Source: Branchiostoma floridae (taxonomy: Eukaryota > Chordata > Leptocardii > Amphioxiformes > Branchiostomatidae). Taken from it: DNA of 64,000 nucleotides. Below, piece by piece: positions 8,752-62,000 of this stretch. The position numbers and the translations under genes were made by a program. The stretch covers positions 6,499,731-6,563,730 of the forward strand of contig NC_049996.1 in assembly GCF_000003815.2 (NCBI RefSeq). The letters run 5' to 3'. The notes below the pieces were generated by a model, which saw only the letters and a program-made list of their open reading frames with translations, was not told where the DNA came from and ran no database searches. Positions within the stretch are counted from its first letter, which is position 1, and each line of letters starts with the position of its first letter.

Positions 8752-9167
8752 CTAGGGGGACCCTGCGTCGACTTCGCACACATATTTATGAACTGTAAAG
8801 CATCGCACATCGTTCCACTTGTAGCCATATTTTGCTCTCCACTCTACACAGTCCTCACGAGAGTGTTGATTGTTAGGTTCCCCTTGGTTCCAGTTGTTCC
8901 AGCCCGTGCCGAGTGGCGTCCCGTCCTCCCACACAAATGATCCCTCCTCCTCCCGATCTGCCAGTCCGAACCAGACCGAACCAGAGGAGCCATTAGGGTA
9001 CATGACGTTGATCTGTTCGACCAGGAAAGCGTTGGTTGCGTTGTCTTTAGGCATGGCCAGATGCCCACCGGCAGCCTTACAGGAAAGCCTGGCGTCATTG
9101 TAGTTCTTACTCTCGGTAGAGAAGTTGAAGCACCTGTTTTGGAACTGTACATAACCGCTAGGGCAGC
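8752..9167 (-). CDS. Lectin exon 4: C-type lectin domain
   Basis: Acceptor CCCCAG at 9168-9173, phase 1 entry completing a Gly codon, stop TAG at 8752-8754. It begins G-C-P-S-G-Y, a typical CTLD opening (long-form first Cys). It contains W-F-G-L-A-D, W-E-D-G-T, G-E-P-N-N (EPN, mannose-type calcium site) and K-W-N-D-V (second calcium-site motif), and ends Y-V-C-E. All residues normally needed for sugar binding are present, so calcium-dependent binding of mannose-like sugars is a reasonable family-based prediction. Confidence 0.9.
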
Positions 9168-12100
9168 CTGGGGAAAGAGTTGATAGAAATCCATTTATTA
9201 GAAGCTGCATCGAAATATTTTTCTATATTATCATATAGAATGTACTTGTATACACACTGTGATCATATTCCGAAGTTCTTATACAAATGGGCACATCAAC
9301 CATTACCAACGGCGGACGGTATAAACTTCTTGGTACTTTGGCAAAAGTCACGTGTCCGTCAGCTAACATTGGTACTATAGGAGAGCTTTGGTTCGTGTAT
9401 CTCTCATTTTGAACATGCAGTGGTTCTGATTTTTTTTCAAATATTTCATCGTGAGGAAAAATGTAGTAAAGGTTTAAAGCTGTTTTCCCTCATTATGTCA
9501 TTTATCAACACAGATGTTAAATATGTGATGTACAAAGTTGTATCATATTTGGACATTGTACTCACTAGTTTGTCTGCGTGTATGATTTGTTCAGACATGT
9601 TCAATGCTTGAAGTCAATGCTTCAATGCAGTAAATGCTTCAATTGTGTGGTTTTGACATCAAGTCGCGGAAACTACAGTAGACGGGTCCAATTAGTGTTG
9701 ATTAGGTAAAATTCAGTTGCAGTTTTTTTTTTTATAAGACCAATGATATATTGATAAACAACCAAGTCGTCACAACAATAATGCATCAGTCGAAAGATGG
9801 AATTTATAAGAACGACAACAAACTTTGTGACAGTACTGGCAAAGTCTAACCTGTGTTTTCATAGGACAGATGTAAGTCATTCTCCTACGCAGAAGGCCCA
9901 GTGTCGTTATATACTCATTCTGGCCACTCTGTTTTCTGTGGGTGTCGCCACAAATCAGCTGTCAGCCAATCAGAGAAGACACATTTGAGTTGTCTAAAAG
10001 GAAATCTTGTTTTCAAGACGGTTTTTCAATTCGTTGTCAAGACTTGTTAAGGAACCAATTCTGTGATCCGTCGATCTGTGGGTAGTAGTCGATCGCTGCC
10101 TTACCAAATACTACCCGAAAATACGCAGAAACCATCATGATCTTACTGCGTCAACAACAATACCGTCAGCCTACATGCCCGGTATATTGGACATTCAAAA
10201 TCTCGGTGCTGCGCTCCGATTGGTTCATGTCGAAATAAGAAGCTCATTATTTAGTTTATATTTCTCATGCGTTTTGACAAACCAACAATAGCTAAACCCA
10301 TGCAGTCCTACATTTTCACTATTACCAAGAAGCGAGAAGAAGCCGAACTCTTGTGTTAGACTAGCTAGATTTGTGATACTTTTATAGGTATATATCTTGA
10401 CTTGTTGTGACCTGTACTTAGCTTGGTTGGGCAAAACTGTACAATAAAGGTCTTCATTCATTCATTCATTGATACAGCATAACATGCTGCGCTGCATCTA
10501 CGGCTAATTAATCAGCCTACAGCTGATTGAAAGGCTATAGGACGAATGAATGAAAAAAATGAAAATGAATATTAATATTAATAGACAGACGGGTCAGTAC
10601 TGAATCTGGCCACCCAAAAGGCAGAGATGAGTTTTTAAGAGAATGACCCCAGTGTATATTTAGGAAACTGTTAATGAATTTTATAGATAATCAAAAAGAA
10701 TATTCCTTATATTAAGGGCTGACCTTGTTGAACATGACGGAGTTTGGTCAGATTTCCAACCTGCTTCTCCAAATCGACCTGTTTGTCCGTCAACTCAGCA
10801 ATCCTTGCGTCCTAGAACAGAGTCAATACATGCCCTAATTGAGTTATTCTATTCAACATCTTAAAGACAAATGGACCCACCTAGCCCACCATGATGAGAT
10901 GAGATAATAAGTGACGTTCTGCTGCGGTCTCCCAAACATGGTCATGCTAGCAGAGGTAGACCACGCAAAACATATGTACATCAAATTTGTGATGATTCTG
11001 GCTGCTCGGCTGAAGAACTGCCCAAGGCTATGAAAGATAGGGAAGGATGGAGGACGAGAGTCATGGCCATCCGTGCAACCAGCACGCCCGGATGGTGATG
11101 AGAGCCCACCATAAAAAGGCTAGTAGGTTGTTACATTCTAATGTAAGTCTATCCTAAAAGCGCTTTTATATATCATATATCAATACCATATATCAAAGAA
11201 TCCATCCAGACAATATCTACTTATCTTCCAGACAGATATACAAGTAAACGACAGTCACTACAATACTTATACCTCCGTTACACGGAGGTTACAAACTTTT
11301 GGAGTATGTCGTAACAGTTGGAGTATTCTATATACATACATATTTGTATAAGGATAATCCTACACACAGGACAAAGTGAGAATCCTGAACACAGAACCAG
11401 ACATTTTTGCTAGAAGAGGAATCAAAGAAGCAAGCTATATCAGGGCTTTACAACTATCCCTAAACCTGGACGAGAGGCGCCATAAACTCCCTGTAATGTA
11501 TGATAGACTGGTAACGTGTTCTATCTACATAACGTGACGTCACAGAAGCAGTGACGTCTATTCCTTGACAAAAGCTAGAATCGATTGAAAATCTGGGTCC
11601 AATTTTTGTGCTGTAATTTACAGTTAAGCCTTATCCATATGGATATAGATATAGATATCTAGACATCTACGTATACATGTTAGGCAAAGAACATGTCCTC
11701 ACCTGTTTCGCTTTGTCGGTCCTCAGTAGGTCCACCTGCCCCTGTAGCTGTGTCAGGTTAGCCTGGACCTGGTCCAACTAGAAGGGCGAACAAAGGGCAT
11801 AGATTTAGAATATATCAGACACTGCAACTCTCTGCGCCTAAGCAACAAAACAAAAACGACGTATTTCCGATCAAGGTCCTAAAAAAGGAGGCTGTTGATA
11901 CATGAACCCTCAGTCCATTTTCTTCTTCTTCCGATATTGTCCAACTGCCAAGGGATTGGCAATAATTGACAAGTCGGGTCAAAGGTCGCCACTGTTCATT
12001 AGGCTAGATAGAAGATGGAGTACGGGTCAGCTTTGAGGTAAAAGTGGTCAAGGACGGGGATTCGATGATGTCTTTGGGCAGAGTGTTCCATTCGCGGATA

Positions 12101-15100
12101 GTCCGCGGGAAGAATGAATTGAGTCTGTAGTTAGTACGGCAGGGAATGTGTTGGAGTTGTTGGTTATGTCCTCTCCGGCTTCTGTACACGTTGTTGTAGG
12201 GCAGGGGCTTTAAGGCTACGCATCGCACACTTGCTAGGTTGTGGACAATCTTGTACATCATCGCCAGTCTGGTGTGGCGGCGCCGATCTTGAAGAGAAGC
12301 CCACTGAAGTTGGTTTAGCATGTCAGAGACACTAGAGGTGTTTCTGTGTCGGTTCTGGACGAAACGCGCAGCCCTGCGCTGGATCTTTTCTAACTTGCTA
12401 ATGTCACGGCTGGTGTGGGGATCCCAGACGGAGCTGGCGTACTCCACAACTGGACGGACCAGTGCTTTGTACGCCAGCTCCTTGGTCTTGCTGGAGCAGA
12501 CTCGTAAGTTGCGTCTTAGGAAGCCCAACATTCTATTTGCCTTTGAGTAGGTGTTCTCAATATGTGTGCCCCAGGAAAGGTCGGTCTGCAGTGTAAGTCC
12601 AAGGTACTTGGCTGTGGGAACTCTTTCAAGGGTGTGGTTGTGAAGTTGGTAACTGGAGTGAGCATTTAGAGGCTTTCTGGCACGCGTCAAGGGCAGCTGG
12701 CTGCACTTGTCTGGGTGGAAGGCCATATCCCACTCGCTCTCCCAGACTTCTAGCTTGTCTAGGTCTTCTTGCAACTTTGATGTATCTTCAGGGCAAGTAA
12801 TCATCCGGTATACAGCAGTGTCATCAGCAAACAGTCGGGAGGGGGAGGAGATCCTCTGCGGAAGGTCGTTAATGTACGTGAGGAATAGACACGGCCCCAG
12901 CACCGTGCCCTGTGGGACTCCCGACCTCACGTCCACGTAGCTTGACTGGGAACCGTTGACCACCACAGCCTGCTTACGATCACTGAGGAAGTTCGCTATC
13001 CAGCTGTTGGTGTGTCCTCTGATCCCATAGTGGTCTAACTTGTGTACGAGGAGGCTGTGATTCACTCTGTCGAATGCCTTTTGAAAGTCCATGATGATGA
13101 CATCAGTAGCAACGCCGCTCTCCATGGCTGAGGAGGCTTCCTCGACGAACTCGAGGAGCTGAGTCTCGCAGGAGCGGTGTTTGCGGAAGCCGTGTTGTTG
13201 AGTGGACAGGATGCTGTTCGATTCAAGGTGATGCATGATGGCACTGACAAGGACGTGTTCAAGGATTTTGGCAGGAACGCTGGTGAGGGAGATGGGGCGG
13301 TAGTTGGACGCCTTGTAGTGTTCTCCCTTTTTAAACACTGGGGTCACCAATGCTTCCTTCCAGTCCTTGGGTACCTGGCCTGTGTGTAGCGACGACTTGT
13401 AGATGGTGGTGAGTATGGGGGAGAGTTCTGTGGCCAGCTCTTTCAGCACGCGTGGAGTGATGCCATCTGGGCCTGCTGCTTTGGTGGGGTTGAGTCTTGC
13501 CAGGAGCTTCTCAATGCCTTTGGTACTGATCGTGATGTCATCCATGGAGGGAAAGTCATCACGGAAGTCAGGCATTGAGCACCGATCCTTGAACTCTGAT
13601 GCTGTGTATGCGGTACCTTCGCTGAACGCAGTGTAGAACTGGTTGTTCAGTAACTCAGCCTTTTGTTTAGGGTCGGTGATGAGCTTACCGTTAGACTTTA
13701 GGGCAGGTACGCCAGTGGTGGTGGAGCGCTGGTGCTTCACGTAGGTCCAGACTCTCTTCTGACTAGATCTGGGGCTTTCTTCTGAGCTGGTGGGAGAGAA
13801 CAGGTGTTCGGTGTATCTCCAGTAGGAGCGCCGCATCTGCTTCCTGATCTCTCTGCTCAGTTTCTTGACTTCTCTCCGCATGTCCAGGTTGCCACTTTTC
13901 TTCATCTTCCTGTAGAGCCTGTCTCGCTTTCTAATGAGACGACGGATGTCTGGGGTCAACCAGGGAAGGGATTCCTTTTGTCTAGGTTTCTTGGTTGGAA
14001 TGTGTTTATCCATACTACCTTTCAGTGCTAACTTGAACTTCTGCCACAGTTCTTCTGTCGATGTGTCTTCCGAATTTGTAAAGTCCTGCTGAAGTGTTTC
14101 CATGTCTTGCTTCATGGCTTCCCAGTTGGCACGCCCATAGAGAGGGATGGGACGGCTGGCATTCTTCAGCACGTCTGGCTTGATCTTGTACTCGAAGTAC
14201 ACGATACTGTGGTCGGAGATACCAGGGATGACTTCAACACGGGGGATGAGGGATGGAGAGTTTGTGAGGACTAAGTCTAGTGTGTTTTCTCCGCGCGTTG
14301 GTTCCTGTACTATCTGGTCTAAACCTGTATCATACAGGAGGTCGACAAACTGCTGGTGGAGTGCCGTGTAGGCCGGGTTTGGTTTCAGCGTCATGGCTTG
14401 CCAGTTCCATGATGGAAAGTTGAAGTCACCGGCGATGATCAGTTGGGCGTTCTTCATCGCTGAAGCTCTGCGCAGTGCTGTATCAAGCTTCTCAAGGGCT
14501 GCTTTGTCAGAGGAAGATGGACGATAGAACACACAAAGGTAGAGTGGGCGCTGGTTGCGTGTGAGTAGCTTCAGCCACAGAATTTCACCGCCAGGATCAA
14601 GCTCGGGGACCTCTGTGCATTGCAGGTGATCCCTAACTGCGATGAGGACTCCGCCGCCGCTCTTGTCGATGCGGTCTTTTCTGAAGACATTGAAGCCGTC
14701 AGGGAAAAACTCTGTGGTCTTGATGTCTGGGTTGAGCCAGGTCTCTGTACCAAAGACAACATCTGGTTTGGTGCTATGCAACATGTTTGCTATCTCTGCA
14801 GGTTTCCCAGAGGCTGACTGGAAGTTGACATTTAGCAGCCTCAGTGGTCGGTTTTGCTGTCTGCCGAGCTGACTGTTGCGGGTGGGAGTAGAGGAGTGGA
14901 GAGGCTTGAATCCAGATTCACTTTCTGGGAGGGAGGAGGAACTAAGATTTCTGCTGTACTCCTGCTCGACACCATGTAGGTCAAAGAGGGTGCTGCTATA
15001 GTTGTCGTTGGCGCAAATGACACATCGCCATGTTGTGTCAAGGGTGATGTCCAGGTAAGTGTCGGATCCAATGTGCTGGCAGGATGCGTGGAACCAGGTT

Positions 15101-18100
15101 CCACATGTCTCACATTCTACTCCTCTGTCAGACCAAGTGACTGGTAGATCACAAATCCCACAAGGGGCACTTGAAGAATCATTGCTGGACATACTGATGG
15201 TAAGAAGGGCAATGAAAACAAAAGAAAACGTTCGCAAACTCAAAAGATAAGAATCGCCAGTGTGGGAGGGGGGTGCCATGCCAATGTCACATTGAAGTGA
15301 AGTTTTTCCTCCTAACTAGCAAAAAGAAATTATAAATGAGAACAAAAAAGAACTCTAAACCCTATCTACCACTTATCTAGCGTAGATGGTGCCCTCCAGG
15401 AGCCTCCACCGCTGAAGATTGAGTTGGATTGGAATCCCCAGGGCTGGAGGTCCTGAGAGGACAGCCATCTTGGCTGGTGACCTTTGACCCCTCATGTCCG
15501 TGTATGATCATTTTATATGTGCCGTTAACTTTTCTGGAACGTGCGGTGCTCATAATCCGCGGTTCTGCCTCGTTTTCTCCTGTGAGATTCCCAGATTTTA
15601 TCTCGTTAGGGAAGGGCTGTCCGTGTATGATCATGAGTTATCCCAACATTTATGTAATGTCCACAACCAGCACCATATGTAAGATAACTAATGCAACACC
15701 AGTACATTCCAATCTCCGGTTTTTAGATAAGATTCTGAATAAGTTTGAATTACTTTGAATAGAATTATATTCTATTTGCAATCGTTCAAATAATCAATCT
15801 AAAGTAAATTAGTCTGAATATCTAAGATATATTTCGAATTAATGTGCAAAAATTTTAACAAATATTTGTAACATTGAAAAATGTTTGGATTTCTAGTTTT
15901 TCACATTTCTAGATTTCTTTCCGAGGATATATAAATTGTATTCCTTCTGACTCGTGGACCCATTTATAAAATGTTACAAATTGGTAGACATTGTCAATAA
16001 CTGTAAATGCTGTAACTATTATTTAGCAAAACATCTCCATTCCATAGCGTGGATATTTCAAATGTTGTACAACATTAAGGAACTCAAAATAACATGATAA
16101 CAATTTCTAAGGTATCAGACGAACGATTACAAAGAATTTAAAGTATCCTAATAATGACAATGACAACCATTTCGGCGACTTGGAATTGACTGTAATACAT
16201 AATCTATGGTGCACTTTATATATCCAGCTGTTCCGGATAATCCAGACGGTAACATATATGACAGACGATGTTGCAGACTAAGCAGAACCAAAGGGTAAAT
16301 TAACACGTCAATAACAAAGTGGCAAACGGCATGTTGTATATTAAGACAACATTCTAGTCTCCTTCTGTAAATAATCTCTAAACACACTCAGCTTTTAGTC
16401 TTGAGTGAGGATATAAATAGCGTGTTTACATAATTCAGACGTATCATTAACAAACCATTTTTCTCCTGGTAAAATGATAACTGAAACATGTACGTTTTGT
16501 AGCTTTCATCTAATCTCCTAGCAGATGTGAGGATTAAAGTTTTTCAACTTTGGTACTGTTTTCTACTCTTGTGTAATTAAAGAGTCAGCTGTAGAAGTGA
16601 GGAATCCCGCCAGTGTACTTTGCACGTAATTTGTTATGGTCACGGGGTGACAAAGTTCGACGTAGAACGCCGTACGTTGCGATTTTGAGGTCGAAGTATT
16701 TTCAAGCAGGCTGTGACAGAATCAACCACCAATTATGGAAACAAGGATCCATGGCAGACTGTCTCGTTACAAGAGAGTAGAACAGATATGAATGGCTATC
16801 ACTAAAATGCCTTAAGTTTGCGATCGCATGACACTTTAACCATGTATGTGAATGTCCATCTTACACCATCTTACAAAACGCGAAAACTGATCGGGCACCG
16901 AATCCGTGAACTTAAAATGACATTTTCTGACACTGTCACAGTTATACGTCCTGTGTTTTTCCGATCAATGCGAGATTTCTATCATACAATTCCCTTTTCC
17001 TATGATATTTTTTTTAAATTCTGCCTAGGCGCTCCATCATGTGTTAAAGCAACTCTCACATATGGACAAATTGATTGTGGTTATTGTCTTCTTTAAATGA
17101 TTTACTAATCTTTACGTTAGGTCGCCAAGTTCACTACAGGCAGAGACTCGAGCTCATTTCGCACCTACAAAGTTATTCCATCAGAATAGGCGAAGCTCCA
17201 GGTATGCAAACCCCAGCCACCGATGGCCATACGAGTCACCGCATTGCTGCCGAAAATGTTATAATGTGACGTTGCGCGAAAATTGTTCGGACGACAAGTC
17301 TGCGGCCTTTAAATGACATTCTTGAAAGTAAGATTGGATGACTTACGTCCATCATAAGAAGATAAGTTGCAACCGAACGCATATTGTGTAAGCCAACACA
17401 TTGATGTACACATGCTGAGCGACCCTGACTAACCTACACAGAGACTTGCTCAGAACTTGCTCAAAATGTGGGGTACGGTTGCAGATTGAGGATCTAAAGA
17501 ACGCTATTGGAACAGGGAGAGAGAGAGGACTTGGTCCATGTAACTCGTCCAAGATGATGATAATTTGTAAGTTCTGGCCAAAGGCAGAGTTACTCATCCT
17601 TAGAACACAACTGCGCTAATCAGTGAACCATGACCAAAACACAAGCTGACTGAAATGACTCGTTCCCGTCACGTTTCTGACAAACGCACCGTATCTACAA
17701 AGATAGGTAGATGTCCTTATCGACATGACTGGATCTAATAAATCCGTACGGACCTGAGGAATGTGTGTTACATCTCCGTTAAAATAAAACAAATATACTC
17801 CCTTTATAATCCAGTCTATCAGGTACTCCCGTAAAATAGTTACTGTATCTATAATAAATACATCTATTCTGTTAAAAAGCAGATGAATAAAAATCCACAA
17901 GATACAAAGGCAGCCTTACCAATCCTTACAAAACAAGTAGACTGATCAGTAAGTTATTAGCCAAGAAAAGCGGACTGACCTGGCTAGTTCCCGTCTCCTT
18001 GGTGCACACGAACCTTTCCTTCGTGCTGGGACGGCAGGAGTCAGCAGTCGTCTCTACCGAAGGCTGCCCTGGGAGTTGTCGCCCCTGGCCCTCTGCTACG

Positions 18101-50000: not shown

Positions 50001-53000
50001 AAGGTATTTCACACCCTGCACATTGTAATTCTCCTGCTGAATGCTTCAAGCCCAAACTCAACCTAAGGTCTCTATCATTCCCATCATGTCCACACATAGG
50101 TGAGCATGGGGGAACTACATGAACAGTCTTGTAATCAGTTATAATTAGTACCAAAATGGTTTATTTCTTTGTTAATCTGTGATAAGATTTTACAAACATA
50201 TGAGAAATGTATATGGCAATAAGCAGTATGCAGTTGTAATACATGTACAAAAAATGTTGAATTTGTATTCATTAAAGCCCCCTTCACACGAGAGCACGAA
50301 TGAGCCTGAATGCCGTCAGAATGAATTTTTTTTCTATTCCTGGCAATTCCTGGCAATTCGTAGTGTATTCTAAACATTCTTACTGCATTCCAGATATTCG
50401 TCCCCATTCTTTTGGCTGGCTCAAATGTTTTTGGCATGTCAAAAACTTTCGAGCTGCATTTGAAGTGGAGAAATATCGAATGGCATTCAAAGTGTATTCG
50501 AAATGCAGTCTGACCGCATTCTACGGCGTTCCAACATTATTCGAGACATTCTGATCTCATTCCATGGAGAATCGAAACGGCAAGCCACTTTGAATCCTGC
50601 TCGAATGTGGACAAAAGAATATCTGGAATGCAGTAAGAATTTCTAGAATACACTACTAATGCACAGAATAGAAAAGACTTTTCATTCTGACGGCATAAGG
50701 TCCATTTGGAATTCCCACTCGGAATGGCCCCGAATGTGGCACAAATTTTACACATACTTCATTCCGGCTGGTTCTGCTTGATTCCTGCTAATTCGGTTTC
50801 CGTGTGAAGGCCCTATTAATGAGGTATTTTAGAAAATAACACCCACTTCTGGCGTTGTGTGACCCAGTGAGATTATAAGATATACAAATGTAATATTTAA
50901 TATGTAGTTTTGAAGGAAAGCCAGAGTGGTGTTACTAACCTGTACATGGAGGAATACTCGTGTGCCTCCATGGGCACTAGTCGCTCAAAGATATCTGGCC
51001 CTGTAACACTTGTATCGATTGGCTGGAAAGGAAGGGCCTTCACTAATGACGCACCTGTTGAATAATAAGAACCATTATTTCAACAGTATCAGCATGGCAT
51101 TGTGTGATCTGTCACATTTACAGGAGAATCAATGTAAAAGTGACACTCAAGTACAACACTTTCTTGGTCTAAATTCTTTCATTTTGGAGATTGAACCATT
51201 CAAAGACAATGGTGCATTCATCTTTGCATTGGCTCTAATTCCTTATTGGTTAAAATTTATCCTGTTACAGTGCCTCTATTGTCAACTACATTGTACATCA
51301 TGGAAAAAATCCTTTTCAAGAAAATCACAATACAGTAACAAATACTAGACAAATCTCATTCTAGCTTTACTGAAACCATCATTACCACTTAACGTTACTA
51401 CAATGTAAGACCAAAGAGCCAGAAGCAAATCTGTTTTCTTCCCCCACATTGACTTACCTTTTAGTTCTGGCATAGACTCGATTGGTGGAACTGTCTCGTG
51501 ATAAACAAAGTCATTATCTTTTTTAGCTCCTCCATACCTGCATAAAGATAGGCAAAATACAGCAGACTTCACACTCTCTGAGAGAACATACACAAACTGG
51601 AACTGCTCAGAATCAAATCAAATCAACTTTATTAAATCAACATGTAGCAGTCATCCAGACTGAATTGAGTCGATTTTACAGGCTGGGATAGTACTAATGT
51701 ATTGGCAGTTAAAATCAAGAGAAAGGTAGAATACAATTTCTAAAACCATTTCGTGTGTCAATCTTCTAACGACGTACATATCAACACAACAATAACAAAA
51801 CAACTGAGTACATGTATATTGCACATGATTGGGGCGAACGATATTGCACATAGTGACACGGGGCTCAGACTAGGTCTAGTAAGTCTCTCGCTACCCTCGC
51901 CACAAACGAGTTCCTATGTCTCTCAGTACGGCTGACTGGCTGTTTGTACGACTTTCTGCGTCTCAGTTCATGTGGTGATTCCTCATTTGGTTGAAGGAAG
52001 ACATGGCAGGGGTGCGAGGGATCTTTCAGAATCCTTTTCAACTCGCGCAGAGACGCCTCCCTTCACCTTGACTGAAGGGTTGGCAGTTGGTTACAGGGTA
52101 TGCCACATACATGTATCTTGAGGCATGTCTTTTGAACTTTTTCCAAGTCATCTGACAAACAACGTGGGAGGCCACCCCAGACAGGGGAGGCATACTCGAG
52201 CACCGGGCGGATGAAAGATATGTAAATTTGCAAAAGAGCATCTGAAGGTAACCCAGCACGTCTCGCTACACGCAGGTGATGTATACGTGGTTGAGCCTTT
52301 GATTGCATGTATTCAACATGGGAGCCCCATGTAAGATCATTGCTGACCATTACTCCAAGGAGCTTGAATAAAGAGACCCTCTCAACGGGCTCGCCCCTTA
52401 GCGTAAGTGGTGGGGGTATTAGCGGATTTCGACGGCAGCTGATGACCATATCTTTTGTCTTTTTTGCATTTGCCTTCATTCCATAATCATTTGCCCATAC
52501 ATCTACTCTGTCAAGTGAGAGTTGCATTTGCCCCGGTAAAGATGCCATGAGGAATTCGGAGGTAGTAAGATCGTCCGCGTATTTCACAGGTGTTATGCTG
52601 GGCGGTATTCCAGGATCAAGGTTGTTCATTGCGATGATTAAGAGTGTCGGTGAGAGGATTCCCCCCTGAGGTGTACCTGCGAGAACTGCTTTAGCTGAAG
52701 ATATGTTCGTTCCCCATTTTACACACTGAACACGATCACTCAGATAGCTGCTCAGACATCGCCATAGATCCCGTCTAATCCCGAGGTGTGACAAACTGCG
52801 GAGGAGACTTCCATGATCTATGGTGTCAAACGCGCGTGTAAGGTCAACAAACGCAACATGCACGTCCATCTTAGGATCATACCATCATACCACGATTGCG
52901 TTGTCTGGATGAGTGCTGATACTGTCGAGCGCCCCCTTCTGAAACCATGTTGAGAGTCATGAATCAGGTGATTTGTGTCCTGTAGCAACAAGTCCCGGAG

Positions 53001-56000
53001 AAACACCTCGTACACCTTTCCCAAACAGCTCGTTAAGGAGATGCGCCTGAAATCTTCAGGACCTTTGGGCCTGGTCGCCTTCGGTACAGGCACCACAAGT
53101 TCTTCTTTCCATTGTAAGGGGAAGATACCCTGTTGTAGGCATGCGTTATAGATATTGCACATTACAGGAGCAAGCTCTTCAAAAAAGTTGGATAGTAGCC
53201 ATGGTGGTATATGATCCCCCCCCAGTGGCCTTCCGAGGATTCACCTTCTTCATCTGAAGTTTCACTTGCCCTATACTTAATTCTGGTATGGCTCGTGGTG
53301 ATGGATTGTCAGATATTTCTGCAAAACTGGGTATGACTCTGTCCACATTTGACCACACAGACGCAAAGTGTTCACTTAAGTCTGTTACAGAGCACGCTGT
53401 ACTGTTTGCTCTTGGCTTTGCTCAGAACATAGTAACTGTTACAGAACTCCTATACATGTATAAGAAAGAACTATTTTCTCTTAGCCAGTTTATCCTTAAG
53501 CAATCATGTGAACATCCAGACTAGACAAGGCACTTAACACTTACTTTCCTCCCACCACATCCATAGTGAACTGCAAGGCTTCTGAAATGGTGTCTACTTG
53601 ACCCTACAGGGACAGGGAATATGTTTCAATTCAGTCCACATGTTAATATTTGAATGTGTTTATCCTAACATACATGTAAATATCAAGTATCATCAGTACA
53701 GGGCAATGTTTTAAGCATTGTTTTGAAGAACACATTTGTTTTGTATGGTCTGATTTGCATAATCAATCATTAATGATGACCTCAACCCACATTAGGTGGC
53801 AAACTGATGGGTTTTTCCTATTATTTACTATTAACACATTTATAGAAGCTGTCTCTTACTAAGTATGCAAATAAGGCCCTCATTTGCATAACGCAACTGT
53901 TTTGATGGTCTTCTCAAACCAAAGGATATTTTAGAATATGCGCCTTATGTATCAAATACATTTATGACATAGAGGGCAAGTTATGCATTGTACCATTCAT
54001 AATTATTCAGGTTTTTTTCTAGAAAAAAAAGCTGATCTGGAATTTGGTATTGGGGTAGCTTTAGCACCAGGAATGGAGAATGGGTCACATAGACCAGTCC
54101 ATTTTGCATACATAGGGGTATTCTAGAAGAGTCCATTCTTACATTGGGGGGAGGCAACTTTTTAAAACCTTCATTTTGGAGTGGGATGATGTTTTAGGAT
54201 AAGTTTATTTCTGCAAAAGGTTGATATGGAACATTATATTTTTGTATTGGGATAGAGATGGATTGAAATATGCTATATTTGCTTATAAGCAAATGTCGGC
54301 CTTTCTAGTTACATACCAAATCATCTTAAAGATCCAGAGGTTTTTTGACTGATCGAGGTACAATGTAATTAATGTAACTTCCTAAATGAACACATACAGA
54401 TAGAATATACAATGATATTTCATTAAGTGCATACTTACAATGTATTCCTATAAGAACATACCTTTGCTAGTTTAACTGCTTCAGTTAACTTGTCAAATGC
54501 ACTCTTGTAGTAAGTGACCTGCAAAGTATGTTGCAAGGTGAATCCTATTTCAAATCGAAAGGTTCTGAGAACTTATTTGATATGAATAATTACTGTCTCT
54601 TGAGAGCTCACGAGAAGCATGAAAACAAGATGCGTGTTCGGATGTTATCAGTAGATATCAAATTTTGTAACAGGAGTAGTCTTATAACTTTCATCACCAG
54701 CAGCTGCAGAATCTACCACCACCACCACAGTTCAGTACTGAACTGGTACAAGTGAGGGTTGATGCACCCTGATGTAAATTGTCTCGACTGTCTTCCTGCC
54801 AAGTTATCACACTATCAGTATCACACTATCAGTATCACACTCTGGAATGTCAGTGCAGTAAATCAGACATCTGATGATGTTGGTGGGATCAACAAAATTC
54901 ACCGAGTGTACAGTAACTCTTTGTGTTGGAACAAAGCTCAAACTTTGCAACTAAAAATGACTAACCTTTTCTCCAAACTTTTGCTGCTCGTCAGCTTGAT
55001 TTCCCATGAATAACTACAAAAGAAATAATGAAAAATCAGCTGTTCAAAAGAGCACACATGGCTGTGAATTTTTAAACCAAAAAGTGATTGTTCAAAATGC
55101 GTGCAAAACGTAGCACGACTTATAACACAATGATTATGTTGTAGACAAGGTTTAGAAGACAGTTGAGTCTAAGAAAAAATGTTGTGTTTCCGGTTACATA
55201 GCTTTCTTTTGTTGACTGCTAACACTGGCAAGGGAAATAAAATTTTAGATCTGACATCATGAGTGATGAAAATGTTGAGAATTGTTTCCTGGCATGTTCT
55301 CATTTATATTGGAATAGAAAACTGTGCTTGTAAAAGGAGATGCCCTACCATGCCACGCTTTGTCACGCACTCAAACTTATGGCGCTCCATTGCTAGGTAG
55401 TTTCCAGAGATTGGTCAAGTTTTGATACATGAATTTTTAACACATCACCAAGAACATGCTTGGATAAGAAATACATTCATACGGTCCATGAAGCCGGGTA
55501 AGGGGAAAGAGCGGTATGTGACTGTATAATGTACCCGTATATGTACACCAGTACACCCCCCTTTTGTGGCCCTACCAATCCAACATGCACCGAGAAGTCG
55601 CGCCTCCTGGTGTAATGCTCTAGAATCCCAGATTTACACATGCTTCCAGTAGAAACTTTCGAATATTATCAATAAAGGATCACATAAACATGACTTGTAC
55701 TTTCGTCCCTTATCTATTCCATGTTTGTAGAGTAAGTTAGTAGCATACTCTCACCTCTCAAATAGAAGTACCCCCTGGAATAAAAGTCCCCCCCGGACAA
55801 ATCTTCAAAATCTAATAAAAGTACCCCCTGGAATAAAAGTACCCTCCGGAAAAATACCAATTGACATGTAAACTGCGTCCATGGTTCTTCTGTCCAAGAG
55901 AAGATGATAACCAGGTAGGTTCTTTTTATTGTTTATGTCTGAATACCATATACCATATAAGTTACTAGAGAGTCAAATCAAAGTTAAGAATTAATTTCAA

Positions 56001-59000
56001 AAGTCTGTAATCATTTCTACATACATTTCAAAATTTGCTTAGACTTTCTCAATGTTCCTCCATTTCCATGCGATGTTCAGAATACAGTACTCAATGTCAT
56101 GGCAGTGGGAACAATGTTTACAATACTTCAAAACAAATGGCTACATCACACTGCCATAATCTTAAAATGTTTATCATTTTTGGCCATTTTAATTGGTTAG
56201 ATTGGGCCTTGAAAAATGTCATATAGAGTAAAATGTTTGACCTGTACAAGGCCCAAAATAAAGTGCACTTACCCAGTCAGTGAAGCTTTTTATGTATAAA
56301 GGCTAGCTACAAATATCAGCACCTAAGCCTCTCTGCATCTCTTGTTAATCAATTCCAGAAATTTATTGAGAGAAAGAACACAGAACACAATTGTTTCACA
56401 CGTCCCCCTACATGTCATATCGTATTGCTGATTCCTCTGCAGGCATTACCAGAAGATAGATAGAAAACACGTTCCTTGAGACCTGTGTAAATAGTGATAC
56501 ACACCAAATATGGTTTAATTTATGCATATGAGGCAGGTCCCTCCAGGGAAACACATTCCCACGGCTTGTATCCATAATGCTCCGCCCACTGCACCGGGGC
56601 CTGGCTAGCGGCAAAACTTTTTAGAGGCTCAAGAAACTTAGCCTGATTAAATCTCGCTTATAGCAGCCCGCCAAACATCCGCCGGCCCACTATCAGCTTG
56701 ATAGAGAATAGCCCTTAGTCAAGGGAACTGGGTTTTCCATATATGGATAATGTATGTAATTGCCGGGAGCCCACCAGAGCCTGGCTTTTGGTTGCTATGG
56801 ACTGGGGTGGGTTGCTATGTGGTGATTGTCAGCATCACACCTCTTATCTGTAGTTGATCTCTCTGATCTGTGCCACTTGTACTGATGGTGGGAACAGAGT
56901 TCTACTATTATAAAATGATGTCTTTTTAACAACCGCTACACCGAAGAACTAATGTGAAAATTACCCTTCAATACATAGAATAGCATTCATTTACTAATAG
57001 GTAGATGTGCCTGTGGCATAACTTTTGATGTGCCAATCATTATAGGAGGGACATATCATGTTCTGAGAAGTTTGACCAAGGAGGTTGACAGGCTTCAACT
57101 GTCACAACAACATGGCGCATTTTTGTGAACCAACTGTTTTTCTGCAGTTCTCTGCCTATATAGATTTTAAAAAATGTACTTTATGCCAAGCTTTCGTTGC
57201 TGGCCACATAAAATCTCACCACCAGGCAAAATAATAGTTCCAGGAAAGTCTGCGCTCCAAGATTCCTTCAAGTTTCTTGAAATCCCCACAACTGGCACAA
57301 GACGTTGTTTTCCTATTAAACACAAACATGCCTCTGCTCCCATGGGTCCTTCACACAGAGAACCACAGCCCAGCACAGACAATGGGAGAGGCAACTAGCC
57401 CGCCCACCGTCTGGGTGGTGGAGACATGCTAATATACGGTTTCCACGGTAATGGGGGCTTGACCAAAATCCTGGCTTGCCATTGGTGTTGGTATTTTCTA
57501 CAACAGTTCCCCCAGGTTATAGCTAGTGGAGCACAAACTCCGCGGGGAGGGGCCAGTTAGAGCCCTGGACAGCGGAGTTTGTGTTACACAGACTACAAGA
57601 AACTTGACTCCGCCCACTGCACTAGACACTGCACTGCACCAGCCTGCTGGCAGACTAGACTCCGCCCTTTTGGGGGTGTTGTCCAGTCAGGTTTACTTGT
57701 GGGGAGGACTGACGGCGTTGGGATTTTCCAAAACATAAAACTGAAATCAGACGGAAATGACAACAATCAAGTCTCGCGCTGTTTGTACCGACGAATTTCT
57801 GCCGTTTGGGAGAATTTGTGGCCTCAAAACTCATATCACAAGGGAAGCAAAGTTCTAGTTGTTGTTTTTATGTTCAATAATTCTTATGTGAACAAATGAT
57901 TCTTCCGCCTCCCTGCCGATAGCGCGCTTGAAACACGGCCAGAAATTCCCCGTGCACCATGTGCTGGTATGACGTTTTCTGATCAAATTGTTTTGGTTTA
58001 CAATGTAAACAGGGACTGTCAAAGTTGTTTAAATAAAAATTGCGTTTCAAAACGTCATTGTGGCGTCTTTTTTTTTCTCCCAATAACATCATTTAATTTA
58101 TAGCGTTATAGCAAGATCGACCGATATGTTACGAGTACCGGCAGCGCAAAACCACTAACATAGGATCATAGCGGCAGGGAAATCCGCACTGCCTCGTCCA
58201 AAAAATTCTTAAATTTTGAGCAAAAAAATCGCGGAAATATGGGCAGAAAACCCACACTTTTAATATTTCTGGGGTCCCTGGTTAGTAAAGAGAGCCCCAA
58301 TTTGACAAAAATAAAATAAACGTACCGTCTAAAATAAGGACGTACCGGGTGGATTTTGAGGCGGAAAAAAATAAACGTACCGGTACGTTTATTTGAGAGG
58401 TGAGAGTATATTATAGCATTTCATGGACGGCCTAGCAATCTTACAAGCCGCCATAACGTTACAGCGCAGCAAACACTGCGGTACGGATGGTTTTTGCTTC
58501 ATGGAACGTTCCATCATGCCCTATAAATCCCGAACTATGCGTGTGATTTTTGGACATAGTCAAGCATCTAAAACACAAAAACTACCATTGAAATACTTTA
58601 TAACTATCTTTCTGTTGCAAACAGCGCTCAGTCTTTTCATTCTGCCAACCAGTGCGGCACGATTAGTCCAAAATCGTATCAATGCCATGTTGTGTTTACA
58701 TGGTGGTGGTCACATGACTTGTGACAAATCACAAGTTCGATAAAAATGGCGGACCCGGGGGCAAATATACAAAAGTAACTGTCTCCTCTGTCAGCACTGG
58801 AACACTAGTGCTGAAGTGGTCGTCAGCACTGGAAGTCCAGTGCTGAGCCGGCGTCAGCACTGGAAATCCAGTGCTGAGGCAGCTTCAGCACTCGAAGCCC
58901 TCCTGTCAGCACTGGAAACCGAGTGCTGAGACTACAATCAGCACTGGATTTCCAGTGCTGAGGACATTTCAGCTCTGGAAATCCAGTGCTGACAAATATT

Positions 59001-62000
59001 CCGCACTGGAAACCGAGTATAAAATGTATGAAGTTGGTGAAAAGAACTTTGTAAAAAAAAAAAAGCGATCTCTTTACCACACAGATAGACCAACTGTTAG
59101 TTGTCTAACTCTGACTACCTATTGTTTTTTAAATGATGCCACTTTGCCGCACAAGAAGAATGTGTCGTCCACCTGTAACTACCTATTCTTTGTTTTGTTA
59201 AAAAAAAAAACAAGCGATCTCTTTACCACACAGATAGACCAACTGTTAGTTGTCTACCTCTGACTAAAAAGACACTACTTTGCCACAAGTAGAATATGTG
59301 ATTTGTTGATTTGAAATTTTCGTATCAATTGACCAAAAGAAACGAAACTTGAGTGCCATTAACTGTATACACAATTAACAATATCACAAGTGTCTACTCT
59401 AGTCTAAAGCTAGTAAAAGCTAGTGCCACGCAATATCTGCTTGGAAATAGAATAACACGCACAGATATATCTAAGTCTAAAGGAAATAACTCAGACAGCC
59501 GTACGGACGCATGCTACACGAATATTACATTCAGCACTGGAACGTTCCAGTGCTTTATAAACGTCAGCACTGGAAGCCCAGAGCTGAAGTTTTTACAGCA
59601 CTGGTGTTCCAGTGCTGAAAAGTTCCCGAGCACTGGTAAATCCAGTGCTGAACCCGTTACTTTTGTATATCAGCACTCGGTTCCAGTGCTGACGGCGGTT
59701 TCAGCACTGGGTAACCAGTGCTGAATGACCTTTGCACTGGCTCGCCTCCTCTCCGCCGCGAGTTCAGCACTGGTACCCGAGTGCTGATGGCAGTTCAGCA
59801 CTGGAAAACCAGTGCTCGAAGAAGTTCAGCACTGGAAATCCAGTGCTCGCATTGGTTTCAGCACTGGAATTCCAGTGCTGAGGGAGCTTCAGCACTCGAA
59901 CAAGGTCGTTCAGCACTGGAAAACCAGTGCTGACGTTTCTTCAGCACTGGAAAACCAGTGCTGAGGCCGATTCGACCCATTGATTCAGCACTGGAACACC
60001 AGTGCGGAACCCGTTACTTTTGTATACTTGCGACCCGGGGAGTGTGTGAAAATGGCATGCCGTGCACATGTTAGCCCCAATTATCCAGCAAGAAAGACAC
60101 TGTTTCTACTGTGGTGTCATGCAGGGATATTATGAATTTTAACGTTACACTGAATAATTCTTCCGTGTTGAAGGCCATGTTCGTAAGCTGTTCGATCGTC
60201 AATAAATTTCCCATCAGAGCGGTAAACTCCAAGCAAATTTACAAGTCGTGTTTATGTGATCCTTTATTGATAATATTCAAGAGTTTGTACTCGAAGCATG
60301 TGTAAATCTGGGATTCCAGAGCATTACGCCAGGAGGCGCGACTTCTCGGTGCATGTTAGATTGGTGGGGCCGCACAAGAGGGGTGTACTGGTGTACATAT
60401 ACGGGTACACATACATATATATATATACCGCTCTTACCCCATGAAGTCTTCGCGATGCACATTACAAACGGTGAACACTGTGAGACATTTTAGCATAAGC
60501 ACCAGCTGATTTTGCGCTATGTCAGACAGTGTGCTGTAACTTTTTTTTATTTTATTCTCATTAGCAGTTTTAGGCCTCGACAATTTGATTAGTTGGTTGT
60601 TATGTAATGTTTTACTGGGTAAAGATCTCGCAGGCGACAAAAGTACCCCCGAATTTCGTCCTCGTTTCAAAATTTTTTACCCTTCAGTGCCACCTATTTT
60701 TGGTGAACACATGCGGCGATCGTGATTCAGCCCCCATTCTCAATTTTGTGCTGCCATCTCTGAGAAGCATCTCTGAAACAGGAAACTACACTAACTGTAA
60801 TTCACTTTGTCTTCTCGGTGCCAAACTTTCACGGTCTGAGAAAATTTAAGTTCTTCTCGGAACTAAATGTTCACGGTGAAAGAATTATTTGTTATAATGG
60901 TCACCAAGACGAATTATCTGTTATCGGTAATGATAAATTCATGTTACAGTCGTCACAGTGAAAACAGTGAACATAAAAGTACATTGAAAAAATCAGGAAT
61001 TACAGTTGTAACTAATGTGATCAGTGACACTGACAGTTGACTAATGTTACACAATTGACAACTAAAACATAAAAAATGAATACATATCAAAGTAAACTTA
61101 CATGTGCAATACATGTGAAGTAGTTGATTTTGATCTGTAAAAGCCTTTTCCACTCCTTGTGATGTTTTGTTCCAATAATCTGTGTGGCATCAGGAGTGTC
61201 AAGAATTCTCAAACCTTGTGTGTAGAATGCCACAACCTGCAACATGCAGTGATATTCAGGTGTCAAAAATGTCATAACAACTACAGCACTAATCATACTA
61301 CATGTAGGTTGCACATTGTACAAGCATCCGACAATTTTAGAGCGTCCTCAAGGCTAGAGATATTTCCCAACTTTCCTGTTAAGGGATGAAGAATATTCAA
61401 TGTACAAATGAATAAGGCCATGTTGACTTGATTATATGAGTACAATGTATATCAATGAAGCTATGTTTTTCATATGCATAATGATGAAAGCTGCAAACTC
61501 ACAGTTGCGCAAACTGATATCTTCTAATGATCTGTTACAGTACAGTAGTAATTAGAAAATAATAGTTTTCATCTTATCAAAAAAATCATTTTCTGACAAC
61601 TACAGATCATTAGAAGATATCAATTTGCGCAACTGTGAGTTTGTAGCTTTCATCATTATGCACATGAAAAACATAGTTTCATTGCAGTGGTATGTACCAA
61701 AGAGCTGTGTTTTCTCATAGAAAAAAATAATATCAGGGGCAATAAAACCTGATGACATCATCCATATGGTCCAAAAAAATCAGATATAGGATTCCTTTAT
61801 GCTCATCTATCAAAATTCGTTACGGCTCCATTCTTTCTTAATTCACTAATGAGAAAACAGTGGAACATGAAAATGCTAACTTAGCCAGGTGAAATACCTG
61901 CAGTTCCAAAAAAAAGTGCAGGGGACCCAAACCTTACTCTTTCAGTTACATATGTGACAACTTTGAAGTCCTATCATGTGATGCAAGAAAAATCTGGCAA

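What the first reader, a model, noticed from the sequence alone, without database searches (positions are those of the whole stretch)
58754..60037. CAGCACTGG hairpin array: about 23 conserved palindromes with variable loops inside one TIR element
Each unit is TCAGCACTGG-N4-6-CCAGTGCTGA. Arms are nearly invariant while loops and spacers differ at every unit, so it is not a simple tandem satellite. The units sit in two clusters on either side of a motif-free centre and inside terminal inverted repeats. Arm conservation with random loops suggests selection or copying of a protein-binding or RNA-hairpin module. If transcribed it would form a string of about 23 short stem-loops within PTPN23 pre-mRNA.
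Basis: partly seen in the sequence, partly recalled or inferred. Interest (0 to 1): 0.8.

Follow-up and report, generated by a model that had tools for sequence, protein, structure and literature searches.

The report
Phased palindrome array in lancelet transposon
A small jumping-DNA element in what looks like a lancelet gene carries about two dozen copies of a short mirror-image DNA word, mostly spaced in whole turns of the double helix, and the sequence evidence points to docking sites for a protein that moves the element rather than to RNA hairpins.

Summary
The array is real. It belongs to a 1,271-bp non-autonomous DNA transposon (58761-60031) with 19-bp terminal inverted repeats (TIRs), 9-bp target duplications, 8 + 15 palindromic units or half-units and an internal TIR copy. 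The same genome holds many copies: 69 exact left ends, 66 exact right ends, 106 internal-TIR copies over all families. Two sister groups have different TIRs but the same array. Three results favour double-stranded binding sites over RNA hairpins. (1) Unit spacings are mostly near-multiples of 10.5 bp (21, 30-33, 42-44, 63). (2) Between families, right-array arms differ 7-8% but loops and spacers 27-29% (left array 4-5% against 43-53%), while copy-specific changes hit right-array arms and spacers equally. (3) Almost all arm changes are single-sided, with no excess of compensatory pairs. The TIR's inner five bases differ between families but agree at both ends and in the internal copy. Layout and 9-bp duplications resemble Foldback/Phantom Mutator elements, but no transposase domain was found in the copies read, so superfamily membership is unproven. 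New variant of a known kind.

The parts
58752..58760 (.). left 9-bp target-site duplication GACCCGGGG
58761..58779 (+). left TIR GCAAATATACAAAAGTAAC
   Evidence: 69 exact left ends in own genome
58791..59018 (.). left array, 8 dyads (6 two-armed units, 2 lone or degenerate units), dyad spacing 32,31,31,21,32,31,31
59019..59530 (.). motif-free centre, AT-rich (GC 0.35), with a 65-bp direct repeat pair; the stretch that varies most among copies
59531..60008 (.). right array, 15 dyads (13 two-armed units, 2 half-sites), dyad spacing 32,31,32.5,42,31.5,30,33,31,31,32,31,21,31,44
59650..59669 (-). internal TIR copy (TATACAAAAGTAACGGGTTC) whose inner bases match those of the termini within each family
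60013..60031 (-). right TIR GCAAGTATACAAAAGTAAC
60032..60040 (.). right 9-bp target-site duplication GACCCGGGG

Best explanation
This is a non-autonomous cut-and-paste DNA transposon of Foldback/Mutator-like build. Its subterminal arrays are clusters of palindromic binding sites, probably for dimers of the transposase or of an element-encoded helper, set on one face of the DNA helix so that many dimers can bind side by side and mark or pair the ends. The 19-bp TIR is the cleavage and recognition site; its inner bases and those of an internal TIR copy have changed together, as expected if one protein domain reads all of them. Shown: mobility history (9-bp duplications, many copies), helical phasing, arm-specific constraint in transposing lineages, and matching inner TIR bases at three sites. 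Inferred: that the binder is the transposase, that binding is cooperative, and that the superfamily is Mutator (Phantom/Foldback).
For: Perfect 9-bp duplications in 17 of 26 family-1 copies examined, 19 of 26 allowing one mismatch, and in 2 of 3 family-2 copies. Spacing: best period 10.45 (left, R 0.99) and 10.50 bp (right, R 0.94) in the window; intervals other than 31-32 fit multiples of 10.5 with p 0.0004-0.004 against uniform spacing in each of six copies, which are related and not independent. Constraint: family-1 majority against three family-2 copies (two of them, L055 and L059, nearly alike), right array, arms 20/265 to 21/258 against loops+spacers 55/190 to 56/204 (p about 1e-8); left array, two family-2 copies, arms 4/100 and 7/140 against 24/56 and 42/80 (p 3e-9 and 6e-16). 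Copy-specific changes, right array, 22 copies: arms 40/5372, loops+spacers 29/3446 (p 0.62). Changes within arms are position-specific: in TCAGCACTGG the first G, both inner C, the second T and the last G are nearly fixed; the outer TCA, the middle A and the second-last G vary. TIR agreement: inner 5-mers GTAAC, GCTTC and ACCTC agree between right TIR and internal copy in the families read, and with the left TIR where read. By position, among the 16 of 106 internal copies whose letters were printed, 9 of 9 family-2 copies agree with the listed right end, judged by the first base of the 5-mer, and 5 of 5 family-1 copies (whose pattern itself contains GTAAC, so this part is weak); one more family-1 copy has a mutated right TIR and one had no listed end.
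Against: No transposase domain was found. Three long copies hold LINE sequence in the part read: C6 and C2 reverse transcriptase, C191 endonuclease. A 4-kb interior piece of a 9.9-kb left-right pair and 4.8 kb inward of two unpaired left ends (L029, L031) gave no Pfam match; inward of a third (L030) only zinc-finger models and one weak match below its cut-off. None of 27 MULE, 3 Merlin-like or 3 P-like matches in the genome lies within 10 kb of a listed family-1 end or of the first 100 internal TIRs (family-2 ends not in that test). No binding was measured. In the left array copy-specific changes are rarer in arms (34/2874) than in loops+spacers (34/1609, p 0.02), so strict neutrality after insertion holds only on the right. 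Tandem duplication of a 31-bp unit explains much of the 31-bp spacing by itself, and a few intervals in relatives (3, 9, 10, 29, 34) include some out of phase.
Confidence: 0.72

Rival explanations
1. The array is a cluster of sites for a host protein (a transcription or chromatin factor), carried by the element for its own expression, silencing or insertion near genes, not for end recognition.
For: Phasing and arm constraint fit any DNA-binding dimer. Family-2 copies carry AGGTCAAAGGTCA, which resembles a nuclear-receptor direct repeat (recalled), in the gap of the right array.
Against: The arrays hug both ends, the order of the right array is kept between families, and an internal TIR copy sits inside it, which fits a role in end recognition better.
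Confidence: 0.15
2. A minisatellite-like expansion inside the element, kept alike by slippage and unequal exchange, without function.
For: Unit number varies among copies by whole 31-bp units; 31-bp periodicity.
Against: Such exchange homogenises whole units, yet arms stay alike while spacers and loops differ between units and between families. Intervals of 21, 42-44 and 63 keep helical phase.
Confidence: 0.08
3. The units act as RNA hairpins in transcripts (processing signals or small-RNA precursors).
For: Very stable predicted RNA fold (z -12.2); the insertion lies between PTPN23 exons.
Against: No excess of compensatory changes, helical phasing, position-specific constraint, no Rfam match at gathering thresholds in the window, equal frequency of copy-specific changes in arms and loops+spacers of right arrays.
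Confidence: 0.04

Closest known systems
Muta1 and other Mutator-like elements of Aedes aegypti (type 2 Foldback; PMC5225508, passages read)
   Same: 8-9 bp target duplications, short subterminal tandem repeats at both ends, many non-autonomous copies that mostly share only the ends and have varied middles
   Different: Muta1 repeats are 12 bp with 3-4 bp spacers and lie within a 145-bp TIR; here they are 24-bp palindromes at about 31.5 bp in arrays internal to a 19-bp TIR, and no transposase is known
Tm1 Mutator/Foldback family of root-knot nematodes (PMC3169594, passages read)
   Same: mostly 9-bp duplications, composite ends with variable numbers of repeats, non-coding copies
   Different: 13-15 bp repeats; a Phantom-type transposase copy is known there
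Galileo of Drosophila (P superfamily; PMC3688188, passages read)
   Same: repeated subterminal sites; there shown to bind the transposase THAP domain
   Different: P-type transposase, 0.5-1.2 kb TIRs, three mapped sites in its G subfamily; no phased palindrome array mentioned in the passages read
Hermes (hAT; PMC10368747, passages read)
   Same: quasi-palindromic subterminal repeats bound cooperatively by transposase domains at exact phase
   Different: few repeats, used at the left end; hAT duplications are 8 bp (recalled)

Membership tests
Foldback-type transposon (structural class) | repeat-rich ends with copy-to-copy variation in repeat number | tested here: met
   both ends carry arrays, 22 to 27 dyads in the six copies parsed
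Foldback-type transposon (structural class) | long terminal inverted repeats that contain the tandem repeats | tested here: inconclusive
   the shared TIR is 19 bp; the arrays are inverted copies of each other only through the palindromic units
Mutator (MULE) superfamily | 8-11 bp target-site duplication | tested here: met
   9 bp, perfect in 17 of 26 family-1 copies
Mutator (MULE) superfamily | MULE-domain transposase encoded by an autonomous copy with the same ends | tested here: inconclusive
   27 MULE matches in the genome, none within 10 kb of listed ends; family-1 end lists cover exact matches only, family-2 ends were listed for 100 of 184 and are not in the distance test; the long C7 and C191 pairs are about half read or less
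Merlin superfamily | 8-9 bp duplication (recalled) and IS1595-type transposase with the same ends | tested here: inconclusive
   duplication fits; 3 matches, none near listed ends
P superfamily (Galileo-like) | P-type transposase with the same ends; duplications usually 7-8 bp (recalled) | tested here: inconclusive
   3 matches to one P-type domain, none near; duplications here are 9 bp
CACTA / En-Spm | CACTA termini and 2-3 bp duplications (recalled) | tested here: not met
   termini GCAA..., 9-bp duplications
Rehavkus | 9-bp duplication, minisatellite before the 3' TIR, PHD-finger transposase (PMC6446971, passages) | tested here: inconclusive
   duplication and repeats fit; no search was made for its transposase

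The most novel reading that the evidence does not exclude
The ends form a phased nucleoprotein filament: transposase or helper dimers load side by side on 6 to 17 dyads per end along one face of DNA, and the internal TIR, inside the right array, is a third functional site that must match the terminal TIRs for the synaptic complex to form. Each family is then defined by a switch of the inner TIR bases at all three sites, with the dimer site of the array left untouched.
Probability: 0.3. Interest if true: 0.72.

Novelty: new variant of a known kind. Interest (0 to 1): 0.52.

Why it matters
Whether the tandem repeats of Foldback and Phantom elements act as binding sites was described as untested in the Galileo paper of 2013 (PMC3688188, passage read). 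This family gives sequence-level evidence, with an internal control (copy-specific drift against constraint between families), that such repeats can be dimer sites held in helical register, and it names the bases to test. The matching changes at three TIR sites are a natural series for how transposon end recognition switches.

Tried and rejected
Search for an autonomous copy. The 4.2-kb family-1 copy on C6 holds a reverse transcriptase frame of 828 aa. The 4.2-kb family-2 copy on C2 has RVT_1 (interior only read). The 7.8-kb pair on C191 has an endonuclease-RT type frame in the 4 kb read. The 9.9-kb pair on C7, 4 kb of it read, had no Pfam match in six frames. The 11.8-kb family-2 pair on C5 was not read; an internal TIR 0.8 kb from its left end suggests an ordinary copy beside a second end. 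Of ten ORFs from family-1 loci, unpaired ends among them, eight had no Pfam match, one had Kelch and one EGF_CA. Six-frame scans of 4.8 kb inward of three unpaired left ends: L029 and L031 nothing; L030 zinc-finger models on both strands, host gene or cargo not resolved, and one weak match below its cut-off on a read-through frame. Rfam: nothing. A paper search for the 9-mer, its complement and the TIR string found 866 papers; the 10 listed had no TIR string and none looked related by title; none was opened. Other paper searches listed nothing that I recognised as this family; Repbase could not be searched, so it may be catalogued there.

A first run of the arm/spacer test included copies L035 and L053 in the wrong orientation, placed by a loose match (L043, also wrong, was dropped before those counts but stands wrongly oriented in the alignment). 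It gave copy-against-consensus drift of 194/5230 in arms and 268/3782 in loops+spacers and single-copy variants of 110/5220 and 101/3859, p 0.12. The copies were re-oriented and one search replaces it. L009, L015, L019 and L021 were left out (gaps, truncation); CpG columns and columns with under 60% occupancy were left out of its within-family counts. Drosophila FB 31-bp repeats and 9-bp duplications: recalled; one passage mentioning 31-bp repeats in FB elements was seen (PMC7642927). Likeness of TTCAGCAC to the REST half-site: recalled, not tested.
Full report
The object. The window contains a complete element at 58761-60031: 19-bp TIRs (GCAAATATACAAAAGTAAC left, GCAAGTATACAAAAGTAAC right) flanked by the 9-bp duplication GACCCGGGG, which occurs nowhere else in the window. 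Inside lie 8 dyads on the left, a 512-bp AT-rich centre, and 15 dyads on the right. Nineteen units have both arms at one mismatch or better; no other such unit exists in the 64 kb and none arose in 500 shuffles of the element. The insertion sits between two minus-strand stretches that match PTPN23.

A family. Forty of 69 left ends have an exact right end within 12 kb, whatever its orientation, median distance 1.45 kb. Perfect 9-bp duplications flank 17 of 26 family-1 copies examined. Middles vary most. No copy read showed a transposase domain; three long ones hold LINE sequence.

Sister families. Of seven loci fetched from the array pattern (L054-L060), four (L055, L057, L058, L059) have other termini: GCAAGTCTACGAAAR... 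and, where the far end was read, GCAAAACTACGAAAR.... A 15-mer pattern for these ends has 184 matches in the genome, 10 for the reversed control. L057 and L058 have perfect 9-bp duplications, L055 has not. Their right arrays align to family 1 unit by unit (L058 is a short copy and was not aligned).

Constraint. Columns were classed by the window copy. Between families the right-array arms differ at 7-8% of sites, loops and spacers at 27-29%; left arrays 4-5% against 43-53%. Within family 1 (22 copies) variants shared by two or more copies are also rarer in arms (right 6 in 252 columns against 16 in 164, p 0.0014; left 7 in 134 against 15 in 75, p 0.0016). Variants seen in a single copy, which I take mostly to post-date insertion, are equal in the right array (0.74% against 0.84%, p 0.62) but lower in arms in the left array (1.18% against 2.11%, p 0.02). 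So arms are kept in lineages that go on transposing and, at least on the right, not in dead copies: a cis-acting role in transposition rather than a host function of single insertions.

Helical phase. Dyad spacings are 21, 30-33, 42 and 44 in the window and also 63 in relatives. The best period is 10.45 and 10.50 bp for the two window clusters and 10.30-10.50 in ten further clusters from five copies. Leaving out 31-32, the remaining intervals still fit 10.5 (p 0.0004-0.004 per copy; copies share ancestry). Poorer cases: family-2 copy L055, left cluster, R(10.5) 0.50; L028, right cluster, 0.72; and single intervals of 3, 9, 10, 29 and 34 in relatives.

Not an RNA signal. In 549 units (5,490 arm pairs), single-arm changes number 518, double changes 3, against 12.5 expected if independent. 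Units in related copies are not independent, and units with more than 4 mismatches were left out, so the numbers describe rather than test; still, there is no sign of compensation. Constraint follows positions (core GCxCTxG), as in a protein site.

Three matching TIR sites. The inner five bases after the outer TIR are GTAAC in family 1, GCTTC and ACCTC in the two family-2 groups, and the internal TIR copy, which keeps its own TATACAAAA, carries the same five bases as the termini in each family. Among the 106 internal copies the letters of 16 were printed; 14 could be paired by position with a listed right end and all 14 agree. Nine of these, family 2, are judged by the first base of the 5-mer only; five, family 1, come from a right-end pattern that itself contains GTAAC, so they test little. 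One more has a mutated right TIR (GGAAC, L044) and one no listed end.

Mechanism. I read the TIR as the site of cleavage and family-specific recognition and the arrays as shared dimer sites that help load and pair the transposase. The binder is unknown. Galileo gives a measured precedent for transposase sites in subterminal repeats (PMC3688188), and Hermes for palindromic, exactly phased subterminal sites bound cooperatively (PMC10368747). Muta1 and Tm1 share layout and duplication length (PMC5225508, PMC3169594). All four were read as passages only.

Classification. Foldback-type layout and 8-11 bp duplications are met; the transposase is not identified. FLYWCH plus MULE frames typical of Phantom elements do exist in this genome (590 and 603 aa open frames on C9 and C19), but their MULE matches lie more than 10 kb from any listed family-1 end or listed internal TIR. 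A 2019 survey reports that it could not detect MULE transposases in Branchiostoma floridae (PMC6446971, passages read). I therefore file it as Foldback/Mutator-like, superfamily unproven.

Noticed in passing
window 12004-15315 (-): An open 1,103-aa LINE frame with endonuclease and reverse transcriptase domains and a weak PHD-finger match below cut-off.
   Followed up: partly
window 52063-53240 (-): Two overlapping frames that look like a second, broken LINE; the first has an RVT_1 match, the second was not scanned.
   Followed up: partly
window 8752-9222 (-): A C-type lectin domain exon.
   Followed up: no
window 59053-59117 and 59202-59266: A 65-bp direct repeat, 97% identical, beginning with an A-run, in the centre of the element.
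   Followed up: no
G000 C9:6720537-6721364 and C19:2136178-2137005: FLYWCH plus MULE in one open frame (590 and 603 aa): Phantom-like Mutator transposases in this genome, whereas a 2019 survey could not detect MULE transposases in B. floridae (PMC6446971, passage).
   Followed up: partly
L055, right-array gap; window 59726-59733 (-): Family-2 copies carry AGGTCAAAGGTCA, resembling a nuclear-receptor DR1 site (recalled); the window copy keeps only AAAGGTCA.
   Followed up: no
L040 and L042 (C5 and C6): The same truncated insertion with the same flank on two contigs, about 99% identical over 1.5 kb: a duplicated locus or assembly duplicate.
   Followed up: partly
G000 C4:12054631-12054707: Two family-2 ends only 77 bp apart: a possible minimal element made of little more than its termini.
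   Followed up: no
L030 (C1:4252013-4261013), about 4.0-6.7 kb in the locus: C2H2 zinc-finger stretches on both strands (a REST-like C2H2 model among those above cut-off) some 2-4.7 kb inward of an unpaired left end; host gene or cargo not resolved.
   Followed up: no
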